Below, piece after piece: positions 46,588 to 55,362 of a stretch of 64,000 nt of DNA. How positions within the stretch are numbered: position 1 is the first letter of the stretch; every line of letters starts with the position of its first letter. This DNA comes from Saprospiraceae bacterium. GTDB taxonomy: Bacteria > Bacteroidota > Bacteroidia > Chitinophagales > Saprospiraceae. The stretch covers positions 62,001 to 126,000 of the forward strand of contig JALSGS010000047.1 in the NCBI GenBank assembly GCA_026982695.1, read 5' to 3'. The notes below the pieces were generated by a model that did not search any database, was not told where the DNA came from, and worked only from the letters and a program-made list of their open reading frames with translations. The translations under genes were made by a program, and so were the position numbers.

Positions 46588-49500
46588 TTACTGAATCAAG
46601 ACTTTGCCTGAATACCACGTGCCTGATTTGCCCAATGCGCGCAGGTAGTACATGCCTGGGGGTAGTCTGCGACAATCTATTTCCTTACTGTCACTACCTA
46701 TACTTTGAAAGCTCTGCACTTTTAGGCCATAGGCATTGAATAGCTCGAGTGTAGCCATTTGGTCGGGAATGTGAAGCTCTTTGGGAACTAATCGTACGAT
46801 GACTATGTCGGTAGCTGGGTTGGGCATAACGCTCAGTTGTTTGAATTCAGAAGCTGCAGGTGCTTGCTCCACGATCACATTAGTTACCGTATTGGTACGT
46901 ATAGGTGCTTGATTGTCGAAAAAGATAAGGGCACTGTTTTCGATCAAGGCACCTTCTTCGATGTCTTGTCGTGGTTGCACCTGGAATAGTACAAAACCGT
47001 GGCTTTCTGGTTCGTTGGTCGTGCTGTCGGGCATGTTGATGTTGGGGAATTCCCACACCAGTTTTTGCCCTTCCATGTGGAAGGTAAAGGGATGGCTAGC
47101 TAGGCCTAACACCAGGGTTTCGGGCTCAAGCCCTATAGGTAGTTCATCTTCTATGCGCACGTATTTGACGAGTGTGTTGCCTACGTTTTGGAATCGGATC
47201 TTGTAGGTAAGCACTTCATCGCGGCGTATGGGTCCTTCGGGCCACACGAGTATGTCATTGGGGTCGATAGCGCCTACGGCCAGCGCAGTCTCTGTGTAGC
47301 TGTTATTTGCGCTATTACAGTCGTTACCATTAGTTGTAGTGATGTTTGCCGTGGCACTAAGCTGTTGGTTGGCAGCCGTATTAGTGGAGATAGAGTCAGT
47401 CAGGTAGATGGTATTGCGCGTGCCGGGTGGAATGGCTGCAAAAGACCACACGATGCGATCGTTGGCATAGCTGTCCCATGTAGTAGTTGCTTCCTTAATG
47501 ACGATATTGGAATCGAGGGTCAAGGTGAGCGTCACGTCAATGGCAGTATCGGTGCCGACATTGGCATATTGCACGGCCATGAGATTCTCGAAGCCGATGC
47601 GATGCGAGGTAGAAGCTACTTCCACTTCGAGATCGGGATAGGGGCAGGCGGCAGTGAGTGCAAAATCGTTGCCGCAGTAGGTAGATCCCAGCTGGCTTAC
47701 CGTTATTGTATACGAATCGGTAGTACAGGTGCGATTCCAATTGGTTGGTGCTGTAACAGAGACGGTATAGGTGTCAGGTGCCAGGTAGATTTCATAGCTG
47801 CCGGTCGAGTCGGTATAGATCGACAAGTCGCCGGGTTGCATAGAGATCAATACATCGCGGATGCCGGGCTCGTCAGTATCTTGGGTACAGTTGCCATTTT
47901 TGTCGTAGTATACGACGCCGCATACTTTAGATCCGTTGGGCTCTGTAATTGTTTGGCATTCATCTACAGCCATATTTGTAAGTACTTGGGTATAGCCCGA
48001 TGGCCAGATGACGACCAGCGAGTCGATGATGGTAGCATCACCTAATCCAATGAGTGTTTTCATATCGCTTTGGCCGCCGATGCCTCCTCCCGTTTGACTA
48101 CTTACCTGCCGCATTTGCCAGGTGTCGGTGCCATAGATGTTGGCTTTGACCTTGATGATGGCACCAATACCATTATTATTGGAGATGTTGCCATCAAGTA
48201 CGATACAAGCTTTACTGTAGCATTGCCCACGGCTGTTGGCAAATAGGAAGTTGGCCTCGTCTGCACGATTGGCGACGAACAGGTCGTAGTCCAGGTCGTT
48301 GTCGTAGTCTACCCAAGCAACGCCCATCGATTCGCCACCTTGATCGGTGAGGGGACCGTATACTCGGGTAAAGGTGCCATCGCCATTATTGGCATACAGG
48401 AAGTTGTTGTAGCCACCGTTATTGGCGACGTACAGGTCGAGATCTCCGTCATTGTCATAGTCGGCCCAGGCCGAGCCATGAGAGTGGCCACCGTCGTTGA
48501 CGATGTCGCCTGAGGTGACTTTGGTGAATGTGCCATCACCGTTATTGCGGTACAGGAAGTTGTCTTGGTCACCTGAATTGGCGACGAACAAGTCGAGGTC
48601 GCCGTCGTTGTCGTAGTCTCCCCAAGAAGCACCTACTGAGTTGCCCCCATCGTTGACAATGTCTCCAGCGTTGATCTTGAGGAATCGCCCCCCTCCGATG
48701 TTTTTGTACAAGCTATTGTCTTGATCATTGGTATTGCATACAAATAGGTCGATGAGCCCATCGTTGTTGTAATCCCCCCAGGCACCTGCTGTAGAAAATG
48801 ATGCTTCGAGAATGATGGCATTATCAGTTACAGCAGTAAAGGTACCATCGCCGTTGTTGCGATACAAGTGGTTGAACTTGGTGGGAAAGTACTCTGCGAC
48901 GAACAAGTCGAGGTCGCCATCGTTGTCGTAGTCGGCCCAAGCGGCACCGTGGGCGTAGTCCTTGTCGTTGACTGCAGGATCATTTTGGATACTGGTAAAG
49001 GTGCCATCTCCATTATTACGGTACAAAAAGTTGCCATAGCCGATATTGTTGGCGACGAACAGGTCGAGGTCGCCATCGTTATCGTAGTCTCCCCAAGCTG
49101 CTGCCAGTGAGCTGGCTACATCTGTAGCAATGTTGCCTGATGTAACAAGCGAGAAGGTACCATCTCCATTGTTTTTGTACAATTGGTTAGGCTGGTTTTC
49201 GTCTCTGGTTGTGACAAACAGATCGACATAGCCATCGTTGTTGTAGTCGCCCCAGGCTGCTGCCCAGTTGTCGTAGGTGTGATCCATGCCAACGCCAGAT
49301 ATTTGGGTGAAGACAGCATTGAGGTCGAATTCTATGGCAAGGGTAGGCAATGAATCGCCACATGCGCGTTTAGAAGCGATGTCGAAACGTATGGTTTGCC
49401 CAGGTTCGAAGCCACTTTCCAGATTAATAATAAATTTCATGCGTAGCTGGTTGGCACTGGTGTTGGTAATGCCAGGTAGCCCCGTTTGGGCTACGGTGCT

Positions 49501-52500
49501 GTCTATTTGTTCTGTATTGTACACGAATACGTTACTCGATTGCGTAGGGTCTGGACGCGATGCGTAGCTATTAGAGAGTGGGTATTTGACTTGCGTACTG
49601 CCACTTTCAATGGTGATGGTGGGTGAACCACTGCGTTCGGGCATGGTTGCGTAAATCATGATATCAGTTACCGTACCCAATTTGGAAGACAACAGCTCCC
49701 CTTCTAATTCGATGCGGCTCGAGCAGCTACTGTCTACGGGAGCAGCACTCAAGAATCGCATTTGGAGCTGTGTGGGTTGAGGCTCTACATACAGATAGGT
49801 GCTGTCGTAAGGGCAAGGCCAAATAGTGAGGTTGGTGGGATAGCCGTCACAGCCATAGCCCGAGTAAATTTTTAAGGAGTCTGCAGCACAAGAGTTGAAC
49901 GTAGCCGTGATGCGATAGCTCTTGCTGCTATTCTTGTCTATTTGTCCTAACTGGTAAAAACCGCCGTTTTGTGCACTTAAAGTAGTATTGGTACTCAGGT
50001 CGAACACTTCGCTGATGTTCATCGCACCATTGGGTGCTATGGGGAAGATCCATGCATTAGGTGCATCACTTGATGTGCTATTTTGTACGTTGATATCCCA
50101 GCTTACAGTAATGCCAGTTCCTTCTTGAGTAGTTTGGCTAGGAGAGACCGTTACACTGGCTGGCTTGTATTTGAGGTAGTCGGGCGAAGAGCTGTACTCT
50201 GCTGTGAGATTTCCACCTAAGCGATCTGCCTCCTGGAACTTGAAGTACCAATACATGGGTAGCTGGGAAGTGCTGGCAGTACATTCAGGATCTACTTCCA
50301 CTTTGATTTTTCCGTGAAAGCCGTCGTCAGAGTAGTTGATACTGCCTCCATTGGCCACGTAATAGGCCGAGAGGTCGAAAATGTATTCTTGTCCATTGAT
50401 GGTCGTGGGCGTGATGCTTGCGGATTCTGTGACTGTAGCATTGGTGTACTTGGTGCGGTACTGAATCATGGTGGCCGATACGTAGTCGTAGCCATCGGGA
50501 ATGACTACCCGGACTTGCTTGGTGTACCCCCAGTTGCGGTACTCGTAGGGGAAATAGTCACCACCGCCATAGTTGGTACAGCAGTCGCCAATGCTGAGGT
50601 AGAACCCCTGTTCAATGTTTCTAGTACACGTCTTTATGTTGTAATTCCGACCAGTATAATTGAGCCAATAATAGCCAATGAGTGTAAAGTTGCCATTCCA
50701 GTCGTTGCATTGATAGGCGGTGCCATTGGCAGTAGGGCTGACGTAAAAATCGTTAGTGATGGTGGCTTGATCAATCATGCCACCTGGATTGGACGATACT
50801 TTGTAGTAAGCAGTGAGTACGATCTGGTCGCCCTCTTCCAATACTAAGCCACTAAAATTGGAGCAACCAGCAGCTACCAGGCTGGCAGGGCTAAGGTCGA
50901 AATCAACTGTGAGCGTGCCACCGGAGAGTGAAGTGCTGATAGGTACTAAGGAACAGGTATATACACTATTTGTAGCAGCTTTAGTGATTTGAACATTTGC
51001 ATAAAGCGCTGTGATATAGTCGCCATAGGGCACATAAGAGGTGGCGTAGGCATATGACCAAGATGGATAGGAAGAAGAAGTTTTGATCGTGCCGGAAAAG
51101 ATAGTTTTAAAGGTATCGCTTACCATTATGCGATTGAGCTTGATCTTGTCCGTATCTAGAGTGCCCGCACTGTCCGGTAAGCCATCCTGGTCGTTGTCGG
51201 GTTCTCCTACGCTAGTACGTGTTACTGTAAAGCTTTCGAATACAAGTCCTTCCGTGCAAATTCCTGGGCAATGCAGGTAAGTAGTGGCTGTTTCCAAACA
51301 AGTCAGTGGAATTTTGGAGTCGTCGGGGCAGGAACTGTCCATGACATAGTTGAGCGTCATGCCCACTGTGGCTGATCCGTCACTTGCTTGCGTACAGTCT
51401 AAGGTAAGTTTGAGTTGAATTTCAGATCGCTGTAGGGTAGAGAATGGAATCGGTAGGTCATAAGTAGCAATGAGTTGGTTAGTGCTGGTATTGTAACTGA
51501 CAGATGATGCTGTCCATTCGGTAGTGCCATTAAAGAATTTGAGGTCACCGGTATTGCCATTGTACATTAATCCTGTTGGCAGATCAAAAACCAGCTCAAA
51601 GTACGGATTGGTGCCTTCTGGCAAATCAAATGCAGCCGATGAAATGATGTAATTGTACAAACCCGTTTGGCCATCAGATAGGTCGGATGGGGATTCGGCA
51701 AAAATGGTGAACCCTTTTTCTTCGAGATGTTGCCCTTTGCCGCTATCGGAATAGCTATTTGAGCCACACATATCGGTATAAGACAGGCTGTATTTCCAAC
51801 CCAAGAGATCTATGTCGCTACAAGGAATAGTACTGCACGTGTAACTGTCCCATTTAAGTGTGACAGTGGACCCTGGCTGGATGTTGTCGGGGAGCGTCAC
51901 CGTAAAACTGCCAATAGGATTGCTGCCCAAGCAGCTGTGTGCATAAGTTGTAGAGGTGCTGGTGGGCGTGAGGGAGTTGTAGCTACTACCGTCGATGCTA
52001 TATTGGATGCTGGCTTCATCGATGCGCGAGTAAGGATCGGTACCCAGTTGGCTGATGGTGACCGAGACATTATTGGCAGGACCTGTGCCGTTATTGGTGA
52101 TTGTAAGCTGCTGCACGTCGGCAGTACCAGGCAAACAGGTGTTGAACGATGGAGTGGCAGAAATGGCCAAATTAGGGGGGTATAGGCTCACCGAAGTGTA
52201 GGGATACTTTTTGTTACTGCCTCGTGTTTGCCCGTCGCAGCCCCAAAACGCTTGTAAGGTGGACTGCGTACTGCTACAGCCTACTACTGTAATGGTTTCC
52301 GTGACGGTGATCGACTCGTTTTGTTCAAAGAGTCCATCTCCATCACCTATAGTAGTGAAATCTGCGCTTGAAAAGGTAATCTCGCCCGTGCTGCTGTTGA
52401 GGGAGCCTTTGTCTGTAGCAATTAGGTCGAGGTAGTTGCTGTCATAGGTGTCTTTGAGCACGAAGCTGCTTAGGCTGCCATAGCCGCCATTTACGATGGT

Positions 52501-53055
52501 AACTGTGCGCGTAAAGGTTTGCCCTACATATACATAGGCAGTAGATGGGCTAAAGTCGGTAATGGTCAGGGCTGGGTAGAGGATGTTGTATGCACTTGTC
52601 TGGGCGGTGTCACTTGTGGTGTTGTAATACAAAATTAGTGTATTTCGAAATACATTGCCGGCATCGAGCCAGGCCAAGGCGTCGAAACCTGCTTCGATGG
52701 TTACATCAAAACTAATGCTTTGACCATCAGGCACATCATCTATGCTGAAGGTTACATTTTCTGGGTTGGAAACACTGAGCTCTTGTACGTTGAAAGCAGA
52801 GCTTTCGCTCAAACTTCCTGTTACATAGGTGATGCCCTGAGGTAGCTGCATGTTGAGGCTTACATTCGAAAGTGTATTGCCTGTCTGATTGGTGAAGTTA
52901 ATAGAGGCCGTTTTTCCCGTTTGGCATACTTCTAACTCAGCAGGCACGGAATTGTTCCAGCTAATTTGGCTGACACCTTTTAGCGATGCGAGTAACCCCA
53001 TAAAAGCTACTACGGCTATGCGGGGTAAATAGGTGTGTAGTAATCCTTTTAGCAT
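46588..53055 (-). CDS. Giant exported T9SS cargo with FG-GAP repeats and an ASPIC/UnbV domain
   Basis: 2155 residues, the longest gene in the window. A signal peptide (about residues 1-30) leads to ~1230 residues of repeated DUF11-like beta domains. Seven FG-GAP/VCBS repeats (about 1265-1605) each contain a W-x-D-Y-x-N-D-G-x-x-D-L-F/Y calcium-loop pattern and mostly an NNGDGTF end. An ASPIC/UnbV-like segment follows (NNNGIGAIIKVKANIYGTD), then a carboxypeptidase-regulatory or SdrD-B-like domain (VVYYDKNGNCTQDTDEPGI), CARDB- and DUF7619-like domains (GAIDPNDILVWPEGPI) and a terminal Por/T9SS type A domain (LSVMPNPATDIVIVRLV...LPPGMYYLRALG). It is probably attached to the surface and could act in adhesion; no enzymatic motif is seen. 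Confidence 0.92.
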   Translation of the reverse strand: MLKGLLHTYLPRIAVVAFMGLLASLKGVSQISWNNSVPAELEVCQTGKTASINFTNQTGNTLSNVSLNMQLPQGITYVTGSLSESSAFNVQELSVSNPENVTFSIDDVPDGQSISFDVTIEAGFDALAWLDAGNVFRNTLILYYNTTSDTAQTSAYNILYPALTITDFSPSTAYVYVGQTFTRTVTIVNGGYGSLSSFVLKDTYDSNYLDLIATDKGSLNSSTGEITFSSADFTTIGDGDGLFEQNESITVTETITVVGCSSTQSTLQAFWGCDGQTRGSNKKYPYTSVSLYPPNLAISATPSFNTCLPGTADVQQLTITNNGTGPANNVSVTISQLGTDPYSRIDEASIQYSIDGSSYNSLTPTSTSTTYAHSCLGSNPIGSFTVTLPDNIQPGSTVTLKWDSYTCSTIPCSDIDLLGWKYSLSYTDMCGSNSYSDSGKGQHLEEKGFTIFAESPSDLSDGQTGLYNYIISSAAFDLPEGTNPYFELVFDLPTGLMYNGNTGDLKFFNGTTEWTASSVSYNTSTNQLIATYDLPIPFSTLQRSEIQLKLTLDCTQASDGSATVGMTLNYVMDSSCPDDSKIPLTCLETATTYLHCPGICTEGLVFESFTVTRTSVGEPDNDQDGLPDSAGTLDTDKIKLNRIMVSDTFKTIFSGTIKTSSSYPSWSYAYATSYVPYGDYITALYANVQITKAATNSVYTCSLVPISTSLSGGTLTVDFDLSPASLVAAGCSNFSGLVLEEGDQIVLTAYYKVSSNPGGMIDQATITNDFYVSPTANGTAYQCNDWNGNFTLIGYYWLNYTGRNYNIKTCTRNIEQGFYLSIGDCCTNYGGGDYFPYEYRNWGYTKQVRVVIPDGYDYVSATMIQYRTKYTNATVTESASITPTTINGQEYIFDLSAYYVANGGSINYSDDGFHGKIKVEVDPECTASTSQLPMYWYFKFQEADRLGGNLTAEYSSSPDYLKYKPASVTVSPSQTTQEGTGITVSWDINVQNSTSSDAPNAWIFPIAPNGAMNISEVFDLSTNTTLSAQNGGFYQLGQIDKNSSKSYRITATFNSCAADSLKIYSGYGCDGYPTNLTIWPCPYDSTYLYVEPQPTQLQMRFLSAAPVDSSCSSRIELEGELLSSKLGTVTDIMIYATMPERSGSPTITIESGSTQVKYPLSNSYASRPDPTQSSNVFVYNTEQIDSTVAQTGLPGITNTSANQLRMKFIINLESGFEPGQTIRFDIASKRACGDSLPTLAIEFDLNAVFTQISGVGMDHTYDNWAAAWGDYNNDGYVDLFVTTRDENQPNQLYKNNGDGTFSLVTSGNIATDVASSLAAAWGDYDNDGDLDLFVANNIGYGNFLYRNNGDGTFTSIQNDPAVNDKDYAHGAAWADYDNDGDLDLFVAEYFPTKFNHLYRNNGDGTFTAVTDNAIILEASFSTAGAWGDYNNDGLIDLFVCNTNDQDNSLYKNIGGGRFLKINAGDIVNDGGNSVGASWGDYDNDGDLDLFVANSGDQDNFLYRNNGDGTFTKVTSGDIVNDGGHSHGSAWADYDNDGDLDLYVANNGGYNNFLYANNGDGTFTRVYGPLTDQGGESMGVAWVDYDNDLDYDLFVANRADEANFLFANSRGQCYSKACIVLDGNISNNNGIGAIIKVKANIYGTDTWQMRQVSSQTGGGIGGQSDMKTLIGLGDATIIDSLVVIWPSGYTQVLTNMAVDECQTITEPNGSKVCGVVYYDKNGNCTQDTDEPGIRDVLISMQPGDLSIYTDSTGSYEIYLAPDTYTVSVTAPTNWNRTCTTDSYTITVSQLGSTYCGNDFALTAACPYPDLEVEVASTSHRIGFENLMAVQYANVGTDTAIDVTLTLTLDSNIVIKEATTTWDSYANDRIVWSFAAIPPGTRNTIYLTDSISTNTAANQQLSATANITTTNGNDCNSANNSYTETALAVGAIDPNDILVWPEGPIRRDEVLTYKIRFQNVGNTLVKYVRIEDELPIGLEPETLVLGLASHPFTFHMEGQKLVWEFPNINMPDSTTNEPESHGFVLFQVQPRQDIEEGALIENSALIFFDNQAPIRTNTVTNVIVEQAPAASEFKQLSVMPNPATDIVIVRLVPKELHIPDQMATLELFNAYGLKVQSFQSIGSDSKEIDCRRLPPGMYYLRALGKSGTWYSGKVLIQ
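48240..49265 (-). repeat. Seven tandem FG-GAP-encoding repeats, 153-159 bp each
   Basis: The codon for the conserved Trp of each unit falls at about 49253, 49094, 48938, 48779, 48623, 48467 and 48314, so the units are 159, 156, 159, 156, 156 and 153 bp apart. DNA similarity is high enough (for example GCCATCGTTGTTGTAGTC against GCCATCGTTGTCGTAGTC) for recombination to add or remove units in frame. Confidence 0.85.
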
Positions 53056-53231: not shown

Positions 53232-53258
53232 AGCCCCATCCTCGTCCAGGATGGGGCT
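53232..53258 (-). terminator. Strong terminator of the cytochrome-porin operon
   Basis: AGCCCCATCCT (53232-53242) and AGGATGGGGCT (53248-53258) form a perfect 11-bp GC-rich stem with a 5-base loop. On the minus strand it is followed by TTTCTATT. It starts 25 bases past the stop of the small cytochrome gene. Confidence 0.8.
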
Positions 53259-53282
53259 AAGATTAACCGGCTTTTCGTACAG

Positions 53283-53546
53283 TCAATTACTGCTTTTCAA
53301 GAACTCTACGATTTTGTCTCTTTCTTCTTTGCTTAGATGCCCAGTGAGGCGCATATGTGTACCCACTGCTTCCCACTCTCTGTCGGAGAAGTCGGTAGAT
53401 GGAGGCGCGTTGTGGCACCGCACACAGTTCTCGCCCCAAAGCTGTGCACCCGTAATGGTAGCCATTCGCGTAGAGGAACAACTATTCAGTAAGGTTATGG
53501 CTAATACAAGGCTTATAAAAATAGAAACTATGTGTATTTTTTTCAT
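53283..53546 (-). CDS. Small monohaem cytochrome c lipoprotein
   Basis: 87 residues from the ATG at 53546. The N-terminal signal ends in a lipobox-like LLNSCSS (Cys23), so it is probably a lipoprotein on the periplasmic face of a membrane. One haem motif, CVRCH (Cys41, Cys44, His45), follows. A likely axial Met is in VGTHMRLTG. It is the last gene of a three-gene run (cytochrome, porin, cytochrome) with 33 bases to the porin gene and a strong terminator after it. Electron transfer is the expected role; the partner is unknown. Confidence 0.85.
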   Translation of the reverse strand: MKKIHIVSIFISLVLAITLLNSCSSTRMATITGAQLWGENCVRCHNAPPSTDFSDREWEAVGTHMRLTGHLSKEERDKIVEFLKSSN

Positions 53547-53579
53547 AATAAGTGGCTTTTGATTAATAAACACGAGTGC

Positions 53580-54743
53580 TTAGAATCCCATAGTAAACAC
53601 GCCTGTAGCTCCTGTCTCTGCATCTGCATCGCTCTTGAAAAAATCTATTGCTACTTTAAACGCGGCGTTCCATCTGATCCAGTAATTGATGCCCAGAGTC
53701 AGTTGACTCAAGTCTTCGCCCCACGGTGCTGAAGCAGGGACGTCCAGCTGTGTATAGCGACTTACTACTTCGATATTGCTGAGCCAGCGAACTTTGTCAG
53801 AAATAGAAGGTAGTTGGTAAGCACATTGTGCATACCACACCTTGGAACTGTTGTCTATGACCAGGTTATTTTCGTAATTAGTGGTATTTACACCCAAGGT
53901 TTGATACTGGCCTTTTATATCGATTTTTCCGAACCCGGAGATGGCTTTGACGTAATTGATATCGAGCGCAAGCAATCTCACAGTAGCATCTTCATAGTTA
54001 CCTTTTTCTGAGCCCACTTTGGCAGTATAGCCAGACAGGCCCAGTTCTAAAGTAGATCCTGGTATGGGCATGAGGCCTATGCGGCCACCTATTGCCTTGT
54101 TGGTATTGTTGTCGAGCAGGTTGTCGTAGCGAAGCATGCCGTTTAGTGAATCCAACACGGCACCATTAGAGATGAACATGTTGTAGTTCACTTTCCCATT
54201 ACCCACAAATACGGCGCCTTTGATTCCTATTCCTATTTCACCACCGGGCTGAAGCAACTTCAATCCATTGACGGGTTTGCCCAACCCAATAGGTTTAGTG
54301 GCGGCACGATTGATCCAATCGGGGTGGTAGCGTTCGGTAAAGGTGCCAATGGGCGCGATGAACTTACCAGAGTAAAGTACGGCATTATTGCCCAGTAGCA
54401 AGTTCATTACGGCATATTCGAGGTTTATTTCTTGTTCTATTCCGTTTTCACTTCCCCTGAGTTCAAACTCCACTTCAGACTGGAAAAAAATCTTTTGCCC
54501 CTTTTGCCAAAGAAAAATGGGGTTGAACTTAGTTTCAGAAAAGTTGGCCTCCCCATTCTCGGCCTCAAGCTCAAGCGTGTAATATCCTGCCACTAAGAAC
54601 GAACTATTGGGTAGAGGATCCTCCTTAAGGCTGGCCTTAGGGAGGTTAGTAGTGAAAATTTCTGTTTCAGAGTAGGGTAGCTGGGCCCAGAGATTTGCGA
54701 TACCAAACAATAGTGGTAATGTCAGAATGATTTGTCGTTTCAT
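53580..54743 (-). CDS. Outer-membrane porin-like beta-barrel protein
   Basis: 387 residues from the ATG at 54743 with a clean signal peptide (KRQIILTLPLLFGIANLWAQ). The mature protein shows alternating hydrophobic strands throughout (for example QSEVEFELRGSENGIEQEIN, GEIGIGIKGAVFVGNGKVNY) and ends in a C-terminal aromatic, GVFTMGF, the usual outer-membrane insertion signal. It looks like phosphate-selective-porin-type (OprP/OprO) barrels, but the substrate is not evident. It is sandwiched between two monohaem cytochrome c genes on the same strand. The frame opens nine codons upstream (54770). Confidence 0.78.
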   Translation of the reverse strand: MKRQIILTLPLLFGIANLWAQLPYSETEIFTTNLPKASLKEDPLPNSSFLVAGYYTLELEAENGEANFSETKFNPIFLWQKGQKIFFQSEVEFELRGSENGIEQEINLEYAVMNLLLGNNAVLYSGKFIAPIGTFTERYHPDWINRAATKPIGLGKPVNGLKLLQPGGEIGIGIKGAVFVGNGKVNYNMFISNGAVLDSLNGMLRYDNLLDNNTNKAIGGRIGLMPIPGSTLELGLSGYTAKVGSEKGNYEDATVRLLALDINYVKAISGFGKIDIKGQYQTLGVNTTNYENNLVIDNSSKVWYAQCAYQLPSISDKVRWLSNIEVVSRYTQLDVPASAPWGEDLSQLTLGINYWIRWNAAFKVAIDFFKSDADAETGATGVFTMGF

Positions 54744-54845
54744 AGCATTTGACTTTTTATTAGGCTTCATTCACGCCTTGCCTTGATAAGGGAAGAAAAA
54801 AGTGGATGGAGGTACCCTCCAGCTAATGCTATGGGCGCAATGCTT

Positions 54846-55256
54846 TTACTTGAGCGTGCGCAGATAGGCCACTAACGCCCACCGCTCTTTTTCACTCAAT
54901 ATGCTTTCATAGGAAGCCATGGGAGGATTGCCATGGGTAATCTTCCAAAATATAACACCTGATGCCTGAGACTGAAAGGCATCTGTAGTGAAATTGGCGG
55001 GCTTGGGATTTAGTGCTAATCCTGCTACGCCATCACCTTTGCCTTTAGCCCCGTGGCATATATTGCAATGTTTGGAATAGAGTTTTTTCCCAAGCGCAAT
55101 TAGCTTAGGGTCTTTTAAGTTGTATGGGCTTTTTATGTTTTGGGCTGAGGCAGGCACCTCCCATCTTGAAGATTGTGCATGGATAGGCATGCTTAATGCT
55201 ATACCCCCCACATATGTGATGAACTGGGTCATCACCAACATACCAGGCACTTTCAT
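54846..55256 (-). CDS. Monohaem c-type cytochrome, exported
   Basis: 136 residues from the ATG at 55256. A signal peptide ends near residue 27 (MPIHAQ). The class I cytochrome c domain has its haem motif CNICH (Cys64, Cys67, His68) in LYSKHCNICHGAKGKGDG, and a Met ligand is likely in GNPPMASYES. The C-terminal LSEKERWALVAYLRTLK helix is typical. It is periplasmic and heads the three-gene cytochrome/porin run. A Crp/Fnr-like palindrome lies 91 bases upstream of the start and an imperfect -7 box (CATCTTTG) lies between. Confidence 0.9.
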   Translation of the reverse strand: MKVPGMLVMTQFITYVGGIALSMPIHAQSSRWEVPASAQNIKSPYNLKDPKLIALGKKLYSKHCNICHGAKGKGDGVAGLALNPKPANFTTDAFQSQASGVIFWKITHGNPPMASYESILSEKERWALVAYLRTLK

Positions 55257-55346
55257 AATGCACACTGTTTGGTTAAACAAATATTGTCATCACAAAGATG
55301 GGGGTGCAACCAACCTAGTTGGAGAGAACATTGGTCATGTTGACTG

Positions 55347-55362
55347 AGTGACTTATGTCACA
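55347..55362 (-). promoter_or_regulatory. Crp/Fnr-like operator upstream of the cytochrome-porin operon
   Basis: On the minus strand this reads TGTGA-CATAAG-TCACT, matching nine of the ten conserved bases of the Crp consensus TGTGA-N6-TCACA. It lies in the 127-base gap between tadA and the cytochrome gene, about 70 bases before a possible start of transcription. Binding by a Crp/Fnr-family regulator is inferred; none is encoded in the window. Confidence 0.5.

What the first reader, a model, noticed from the sequence alone, without database searches (positions are those of the whole stretch)
53232..55362. Cytochrome c - porin - cytochrome c lipoprotein operon with its own Crp-like site and terminator
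Three minus-strand genes, spaced 102 and 33 bases, encode an exported monohaem cytochrome, a predicted outer-membrane barrel and a small haem lipoprotein. The unit is bounded by a Crp/Fnr-like palindrome upstream and a strong hairpin terminator downstream. A barrel embedded between cytochromes recalls porin-cytochrome conduits for electron transfer across the outer membrane, but here each cytochrome has only one haem, so the wiring would differ. A plainer alternative is a porin cotranscribed with respiratory cytochromes.
Basis: partly seen in the sequence, partly recalled or inferred. Interest (0 to 1): 0.55.

Follow-up and report, generated by a model that had tools for sequence, protein, structure and literature searches.

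The report
Porin with two small haem proteins
A three-gene unit that couples an outer-membrane pore to two single-haem electron carriers turns out to be a tightly conserved partnership found in several bacterial phyla, and it resembles a known iron-oxidising pore protein split into separate parts.

Summary
In detail: three minus-strand genes with the stated gaps, a Crp/Fnr-like palindrome upstream, a hairpin terminator downstream. The unit is a conserved module. In 248 genomes of the order, strong matches to barrel and lipoprotein cytochrome fall in the same 25 genomes. Of 66 named loci found with the lipoprotein, 64 have the barrel beside it and 53 the whole triad. The barrel is a 16-strand OprP/OprO-type porin, the fold published for Cyc2, a fused monohaem cytochrome-porin that oxidises dissolved Fe(II). 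Relatives link the parts by fusion. No multihaem protein is nearby and the lipoprotein lacks a surface-export signal, so it is no Mtr-type wire. Best reading: a split, Cyc2-like redox pore in which a small solute, perhaps Cu(I) or Fe(II), meets a haem at the periplasmic mouth. Copper genes lie near 7 of 7 Pseudomonadota members against 0 of 12 related barrels, but in the own order metal genes are no commoner than beside a sister barrel type (10 of 26, 7 of 17), which itself pairs with a dihaem protein. Substrate and direction are unproven.

The parts
55347..55362 (-). Crp/Fnr-like palindrome TGTGACATAAGTCACT, in the 127-base gap between the upstream deaminase gene and the operon
   Evidence: 1 mismatch to TGTGACN4GTCACA; same place in the same-genus genome; not enriched genome-wide; 4 Crp-type HTH matches over cut-off in the genome, one with an internal stop
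54846..55256 (-). class I monohaem cytochrome c with signal peptide, presumed periplasmic shuttle
   Evidence: PF13442/PF00034 at E 5e-13; one CXXCH; 76% and 50% identical to the same gene in two other genomes
53580..54743 (-). [quoted passage not shown]
   Evidence: AlphaFold2 pLDDT 87, pTM 0.82; VIA-align Z 27.1 to OprP 2o4v and OprO 4rjw; 30 of 72 family members match PF07396 Porin_O_P, the window protein does not
53283..53546 (-). monohaem cytochrome c lipoprotein, family signature G-x6-N-C-x-R-C-H-N ... W ... H-M
   Evidence: PF00034 24.4 bits over cut-off; residues invariant in 49 sequences; lipobox, no acidic surface-export signal
53232..53258 (-). intrinsic terminator hairpin, 11 pairs
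   Evidence: analogous hairpin in the same-genus genome

Best explanation
The operon encodes one functional outer-membrane redox module, in design a split Cyc2. A 16-strand OprP-type barrel lets a small dissolved redox-active solute (most likely a metal ion such as Cu(I) or Fe(II)) into its pore. The lipid-anchored monohaem cytochrome sits at the periplasmic mouth of the barrel and takes the electron. The soluble class I cytochrome c carries it on to the respiratory chain (cbb3 oxidase and NosZ are encoded in this genome). Shown: the three genes form a conserved exclusive unit, the predicted barrel fold, and natural fusions between the parts. Supported but indirect: docking of lipoprotein cytochrome and barrel. 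Inferred: the geometry at the periplasmic mouth, the solute, the direction of electron flow, and control by a Crp/Fnr-type regulator.
For: Strict co-occurrence: of 248 order genomes the same 25 have strong barrel (332 bits or more) and strong lipoprotein (88 bits or more) matches, 26 places each, none with only one (the tool scored at most 7 barrel candidates per genome). Adjacency in 64 of 66 named loci and in 25 of 25 strong order loci held; full triad in 53 of 66 and 23 of 25, the two misses having about 400 bases of upstream sequence. The 72 aligned barrels plus 6 Pseudomonadota relatives form one clade (support 0.88) apart from 16 other OprP-like barrels. Fusions: three class I cytochrome domains plus barrel in one 758-aa protein, followed by a lipoprotein-type plus class I cytochrome fusion; lipoprotein-type plus second cytochrome fused in L184, L185 and the Alteromonas macleodii and Glaciecola plasmids. 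Barrel fold Z 27 to OprP/OprO, the structures PMC8406198 names for Cyc2. AlphaFold2 of barrel plus lipoprotein as one chain: pTM 0.79, against about 0.68-0.69 expected if the cytochrome were unplaced. Of 37 lipoboxes none is followed by an acidic export signal. Copper-island context in Pseudomonadota 7 of 7 against 0 of 12; CopC, CopD, CusF, MerR, RND pump and P-type ATPases with HMA domain named by Pfam in the loci scanned. The sister barrels of the same order also pair with redox proteins, a dihaem protein and a Rieske protein, which fits a barrel lineage used for redox work.
Against: In the organism's own order metal genes are no commoner beside the triad (10 of 26) than beside sister barrels (7 of 17), p = 1; that control is not neutral, because 16 of the 17 sister barrels have a dihaem gene of their own upstream. 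The window's own neighbours are unrelated to metals. Four of the 7 Pseudomonadota members come from plasmids, which are rich in resistance islands, and one of those (Alteromonas stellipolaris) is a broken copy without a cytochrome detected beside it. A row of acidic residues on strand 3 is shared with Pseudomonadota OprP-like barrels that lack cytochromes, so it is no proof of a metal pore. The pTM argument is indirect: no contact map, no control chain, no haem in the model. I know of no measured activity for any member.
Confidence: 0.45

Rival explanations
1. A plain solute porin cotranscribed with respiratory cytochromes: the barrel imports a respiratory substrate (such as an oxyanion) and the cytochromes serve the reductase or oxidase in the periplasm, without contact with the barrel.
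For: Barrel of the phosphate-porin fold. In some loci the triad sits beside respiratory genes: cbb3 oxidase in L054 and L057, NrfD and FeS proteins in L018, L024, L025, L033 and L038.
Against: Neighbouring respiratory enzymes vary while the triad does not; no association with cbb3 (16 of 25 against 144 of 223) and only a borderline one with nosZ (15 of 25 against 84 of 223, p = 0.05). A cytochrome-barrel fusion exists.
Confidence: 0.25
2. A copper (or related metal) supply or efflux module: the barrel carries the metal and the cytochromes set its redox state for handling, not for energy.
For: 7 of 7 Pseudomonadota members lie near copper genes; 32 of 64 named triad loci have a P-ATPase, RND pump, multicopper oxidase, HMA or CopC/CopD/CusF-type protein on the stretch held (up to 6 kb each side); 13 of 25 P-ATPase ORFs carry the CPC motif, recalled as the copper type (a few loci are held twice).
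Against: No metal genes beside the window operon and no enrichment in its order; the upstream site is Crp/Fnr-like.
Confidence: 0.22
3. A true extracellular electron conduit to solid acceptors or donors, as in Mtr/Mto complexes.
For: Outer-membrane barrel gene between two cytochrome genes.
Against: One haem per cytochrome, 16 strands against 26 reported for MtrB-type barrels (PMC8406198), no surface-export signal, no ORF with three or more CXXCH on the 90 triad stretches scanned.
Confidence: 0.06

Closest known systems
Cyc2 (fused monohaem cytochrome-porin Fe(II) oxidase; PMC8406198, passages and section 11 read)
   Same: 16-strand barrel of the OprO/OprP fold, single-haem cytochrome, haem predicted at the periplasmic side, small soluble substrate enters the pore.
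   Different: Here barrel and cytochromes are separate genes, there are two different cytochromes, and the Cyc2 motif PXFAR[QK][TY] is absent. That paper's screen drops proteins without a haem motif, so split forms would be missed.
Mtr/Mto/Pio porin-cytochrome complexes, PCC3 and PCC4 (PMC5566968, PMC10734462, passages read)
   Same: Barrel and cytochromes encoded together.
   Different: Those have multihaem cytochromes, MtrB-type barrels have 26 strands, and PCC3/PCC4 have a conserved inner-membrane protein; none of these here.
ExtI cluster of Geobacter sulfurreducens (PMC5877670, passages read)
   Same: Barrel annotated as phosphate-selective porin beside c-type cytochromes; deletion changed haem proteins and lowered selenite and tellurite reduction.
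   Different: Its cluster is larger and holds several cytochromes; not compared by sequence here.
PcoAB porin-multicopper oxidase pair (PMC5566968, passages read)
   Same: Barrel paired with a redox protein in copper handling.
   Different: The redox partner there is a multicopper oxidase; none of the 72 barrels aligned here matched a CopB/PcoB family in Pfam at E up to 0.01.
Sister unit found here: DHOR dihaem protein - Rieske protein - OprP-like barrel
   Same: Barrel of the same superfamily with redox partners, in the same order.
   Different: Partners are a dihaem peroxidase-like protein (PF06537) and a Rieske protein, not two monohaem cytochromes.

Membership tests
Cyc2 | cytochrome fused to the barrel in one protein | tested here: not met
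   separate genes in the window; of the relatives read, only the Legionella one is fused
Cyc2 | motif PXFAR[QK][TY] before CXXCH | tested here: not met
   no ORF with CXXCH carries it on the 89 triad stretches scanned, two loci of them held twice; the window cytochromes lack it by inspection
Cyc2 | 16-strand OprO/OprP-like barrel | tested here: met
Cyc2 | Fe(II) oxidation | not testable with these tools
   no biochemistry
Mtr/Mto/Pio and Omb porin-cytochrome complexes | multihaem cytochrome partner | tested here: not met
   one CXXCH in each cytochrome; no ORF with three or more on 90 triad stretches
Mtr/Mto/Pio and Omb porin-cytochrome complexes | 26-strand barrel (MtrB type) | tested here: not met
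   16 strands in the model
Porin_O_P (PF07396) | match to the family profile | tested here: inconclusive
   window protein no match; 30 of 72 family members match at E up to 0.01, best 6e-7; fold agrees
class I cytochrome c | CXXCH plus family profile for both cytochromes | tested here: met
   PF00034 over cut-off for both
surface-exposed Bacteroidota lipoprotein | acidic export signal after the lipobox (recalled) | tested here: not met
   0 of 37 lipoboxes followed by two or more D/E in six residues; 12 of 49 sequences, some partial, show no lipobox by my pattern
ExtI | sequence kinship of the barrel | not tested
   no ExtI sequence was fetched

The most novel reading that the evidence does not exclude
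A second, split lineage of monohaem outer-membrane metal oxidases (Cu(I) and/or Fe(II)), spread over Bacteroidota, Calditrichota and other phyla and over Pseudomonadota copper islands. It would have been overlooked because published screens ask for three or more haems beside the porin or for a haem motif inside the barrel protein. It would let cells oxidise a toxic or useful metal at the outer membrane with the respiratory chain as electron sink instead of O2-dependent multicopper oxidases. A sister barrel type with dihaem and Rieske partners would then be a further redox pore of the same lineage.
Probability: 0.28. Interest if true: 0.8.

Novelty: new variant of a known kind. Interest (0 to 1): 0.6.

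Why it matters
Porin-cytochrome systems are usually sought by multihaem neighbours or by a haem motif in the barrel protein. This conserved monohaem, multi-gene version escapes both rules, so the reach of outer-membrane redox chemistry may be underestimated. It gives a small, directly testable complex (barrel plus an 87-residue haem lipoprotein plus a 136-residue shuttle), and the copper context in Pseudomonadota suggests an O2-independent route for Cu(I) oxidation.

Tried and rejected
Rejected or uninformative: (1) A conserved acidic row on strand 3 as a metal filter: also present in OprP-like barrels, among them Pseudomonadota ones without cytochromes. (2) A Crp/Fnr operator as a family feature: 2 of 50 upstream regions at one mismatch, one of the two being the window itself; 4 of 77 at two or fewer; no genome-wide enrichment. 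(3) Tie to cbb3 oxidase: none; to nosZ: borderline, with three genomes whose NosZ is split or cut (G028, G137, G141) counted by me as present, 96 of 248 being over the cut-off. (4) Metal context in the own order: no enrichment; the control was 17 of the 33 weak barrel places. (5) I first took the order's weaker OprP-like barrels for cytochrome-free. A later check showed the contrary: 16 of 17 have a two-CXXCH ORF upstream on the same strand; the 17th lies at a contig start. Three of three scanned are DHOR proteins, and a Rieske-type ORF is seen by a narrow motif in 7 of 17 and by Pfam in two, one of them outside the seven. Only the Pseudomonadota OprP-like barrels are without (0 of 13 with a CXXCH ORF within 1.2 kb on the same strand; L196 has a three-haem ORF some 3 kb off). 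(6) PDB search by sequence: nothing useful. (7) Mirror-tree correlations (0.43-0.67) only show co-inheritance. (8) The first whole-collection scan, with the barrel, found no relative; the second, with the lipoprotein, found 66. These are close relatives by construction; the order survey is the less biased test. (9) Weak lipoprotein matches in the order (5 loci, 31-43 bits) have no barrel beside them. (10) Dropped before the tree: 11 barrel matches below 30 bits; not entered: the short L187 and the broken L146 barrels. (11) Left out of alignment A4: partial L029, L049, L078 and near-duplicates L025, L045, L071, L072. (12) Of 27 Pseudomonadota genomes with a match, 16 were fetched with flanks. 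(13) A fold missing from the VIA list is not evidence. (14) Literature: searches (titles and abstract starts of the listed papers seen; three of the lists were capped) showed no description of this unit; passages of 10 papers were read. Subscription papers and preprints were not searched.
Full report
What is there. On the minus strand the window encodes, in order, a class I monohaem cytochrome c (55256-54846), a barrel (54743-53580) and a small monohaem lipoprotein (53546-53283), with gaps of 102 and 33 bases. Pfam names both cytochromes (PF13442/PF00034) and nothing for the barrel; NCBIfam and PHROGs add nothing for the barrel. The flanking genes are a deaminase, an SDR enzyme and a Bax-inhibitor-like protein upstream and a very large secreted protein downstream: nothing metallic or respiratory. 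The genome is 3.84 Mb in 61 contigs. Its same-genus relative carries the public title Saprospiraceae bacterium S141_9 (contig length 15,327 in both).

The signals. The upstream palindrome TGTGACATAAGTCACT matches TGTGACN4GTCACA at 11 of 12 positions. It is not enriched in the genome: 5 places with at most one mismatch against 7 for the reversed pattern. Yet the same-genus genome, whose barrel is 54-55% identical, has TGTGACAATTGTCACC at the same place, and the genome has 4 Crp-type HTH matches above the cut-off, one with an internal stop. I accept it as a probable operator of this genus, not of the family. The terminator is an 11-pair hairpin; the same-genus genome has a different hairpin at the same place.

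It is a conserved unit. Same gene order in the same-genus genome and in a Chitinophagales genome of another family. Searching 248 genomes of the order with the lipoprotein alignment gave 26 strong places in 25 genomes (88 bits or more; the next match is 43), and with the barrel alignment 26 strong places in the same 25 genomes (332 bits or more; the next is 81). A whole-collection scan for the lipoprotein gave 66 loci titled as Bacteroidetes groups, Calditrichota, Chlorobiota, KSB1, Neomarinimicrobiota, Planctomycetota, Verrucomicrobia and one gammaproteobacterium. Of these, 64 have the barrel beside it and 53 the full triad. Of the 11 pairs without the first cytochrome, two are cut by contig ends, six are Planctomycetota with another layout, two (L060, L067) seem to lack it, and one (L049) has a cytochrome in the ORF list but a shortened barrel. 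The two loci without a barrel are both from the gammaproteobacterium, with weak matches.

The barrel. AlphaFold2 with a 72-row alignment gives a 16-strand barrel, pLDDT 87, pTM 0.82. The best solved relatives are the phosphate porins OprP and OprO (Z 27.1, 305 residues aligned, 14-15% identity; next Neisseria PorB at 24.4). Thirty of 72 members, but not the window protein, match PF07396 Porin_O_P. In a tree of 94 barrels the family forms one group (support 0.88) apart from 16 other OprP-like barrels. Interior charges are mixed, and the acidic row on strand 3 is a feature of the wider superfamily.

The sister barrels. I first took those 16 for barrels without redox partners. That is true only for Pseudomonadota: of 13 such barrels read with flanks none has a CXXCH ORF within 1.2 kb on its strand. 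In the window's order 16 of 17 sister barrels have a two-haem ORF upstream; the three scanned are DHOR dihaem oxidoreductases (PF06537), with a Rieske protein between dihaem gene and barrel in the two loci scanned and by motif in 7 of 17. So the order holds two redox-paired barrel types. None of the 26 order triad loci shows the Rieske motif ORF.

Relatives that join the parts. In 398 Pseudomonadota genomes 27 had any barrel match; the three strongest (182-208 bits) each have the lipoprotein-type cytochrome directly downstream. In two of them, and in the Alteromonas macleodii and Glaciecola plasmids, that protein carries a second haem domain. On a Legionella anisa plasmid one 758-residue protein holds three cytochrome domains and the barrel, and the next gene fuses the lipoprotein-type and a class I cytochrome. 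Such fusions are the usual sign that the parts act together.

Docking. The barrel and lipoprotein, read as one chain with 72 further rows (9 of them paired), gave pTM 0.79. If the cytochrome were unplaced I would expect about 0.68-0.69. This suggests, but does not prove, that the model places the cytochrome on the barrel: contacts were not shown, no control chain was run, and haem is absent.

Side of the membrane. Of 49 lipoprotein sequences 37 show a lipobox (some of the rest are partial), and none of the 37 has two or more acidic residues just after it, the export signal that I recall for surface lipoproteins of this phylum. The cytochrome therefore probably faces the periplasm. Some Pseudomonadota members appear to lack the lipobox (sequences).

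Context. Pseudomonadota members: copper-related genes (CopC, CopD, CusF, MerR, P-ATPase with HMA domain, RND pump; Pfam) near 7 of 7, against 0 of 12 OprP-like barrels, p = 2e-5. Only three of the seven come from the genome search (3 of 3 against 0 of 12, p = 0.002), and one of the plasmid copies is broken. Named triad loci: 32 of 64 with a P-ATPase, RND pump, multicopper oxidase or similar on the stretch held. Order triads: 10 of 26, against 7 of 17 sister barrels, so no enrichment, though that control is itself a redox-paired barrel. Other settings: cbb3 oxidase genes downstream (L054, L057), NrfD and FeS proteins (five loci), COX3-type and Rrf2 genes in Planctomycetota. Across the order, cbb3 is not associated (16 of 25 against 144 of 223) and nosZ only at the border (15 of 25 against 84 of 223, p = 0.05). 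This genome has both (nosZ on contig C6, cbb3 on C15).

Mechanism. Cyc2 is described as a 16-strand barrel structurally like OprO/OprP with one haem at the periplasmic side, so that Fe2+ must enter the pore (PMC8406198, passages and section 11). The present unit has the same ingredients on separate genes plus a shuttle. I therefore propose a split, Cyc2-like redox pore; direction (oxidation of an incoming reduced solute) and solute (Cu(I) or Fe(II)) are inferences. It is not a Cyc2 by membership: unfused, and without the Cyc2 motif. It is not an Mtr-type complex: no ORF with three or more haem motifs nearby, 16 strands.

Novelty. Eight literature searches of open PubMed Central listed no paper whose title or abstract start describes this unit, and the passages read in ten papers do not mention it. 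One screen counted cytochromes as multihaem from three motifs and looked for porins in multihaem-encoding regions (PMC7399161, passages), and the Cyc2 screen drops proteins without a haem motif (PMC8406198, passage), so both would pass it by. I rate it a new variant of a known kind.

Noticed in passing
L230-L245 (for example L233:4345-7227, L245:4226-7097): Second redox-paired barrel unit in the same order: DHOR dihaem protein, Rieske protein, OprP-like barrel, 16 of 17 loci with the dihaem gene; 7 of 17 loci also hold a P-type ATPase.
   Followed up: partly
46588-53055 (minus strand): 2155-residue secreted protein with repeated DNDGDLDLFVAN-type stretches and a tail that recalls the Por secretion sorting domain (recalled resemblance); a similar gene follows the operon in the same-genus genome (L013:3-4076, cut).
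   Followed up: no
48367-48663: 156-base tandem repeat of about two copies inside that gene.
   Followed up: no
L018, L024, L025, L033, L038: In these loci the triad is accompanied by a NrfD membrane protein, a 4Fe-4S protein and extra cytochromes (not every part in every locus), which could be a quinol dehydrogenase feeding the cytochromes.
   Followed up: partly
L069, L070, L072, L079, L080: Planctomycetota version: barrel and lipoprotein cytochrome set among a COX3-cytochrome fusion, a 250-residue-class protein with a carboxypeptidase-regulatory-type domain and a 600-residue dihaem protein with an ethylbenzene-dehydrogenase-type domain.
   Followed up: partly
L144 and L145 (Glaciecola and Alteromonas plasmids): The barrel-cytochrome pair lies between a copper island and a [NiFe] hydrogenase cluster with a seven-haem protein.
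   Followed up: no
L146:11917-12920 (Alteromonas stellipolaris plasmid): Broken copy of the barrel gene beside a transposase in a copper island.
   Followed up: no
L034: A contig titled Caldithrix abyssi HyVt-577 carries the triad, while PMC5317091 (passages) reports no soluble monohaem cytochrome in the cultivated strain; perhaps a different species.
   Followed up: no
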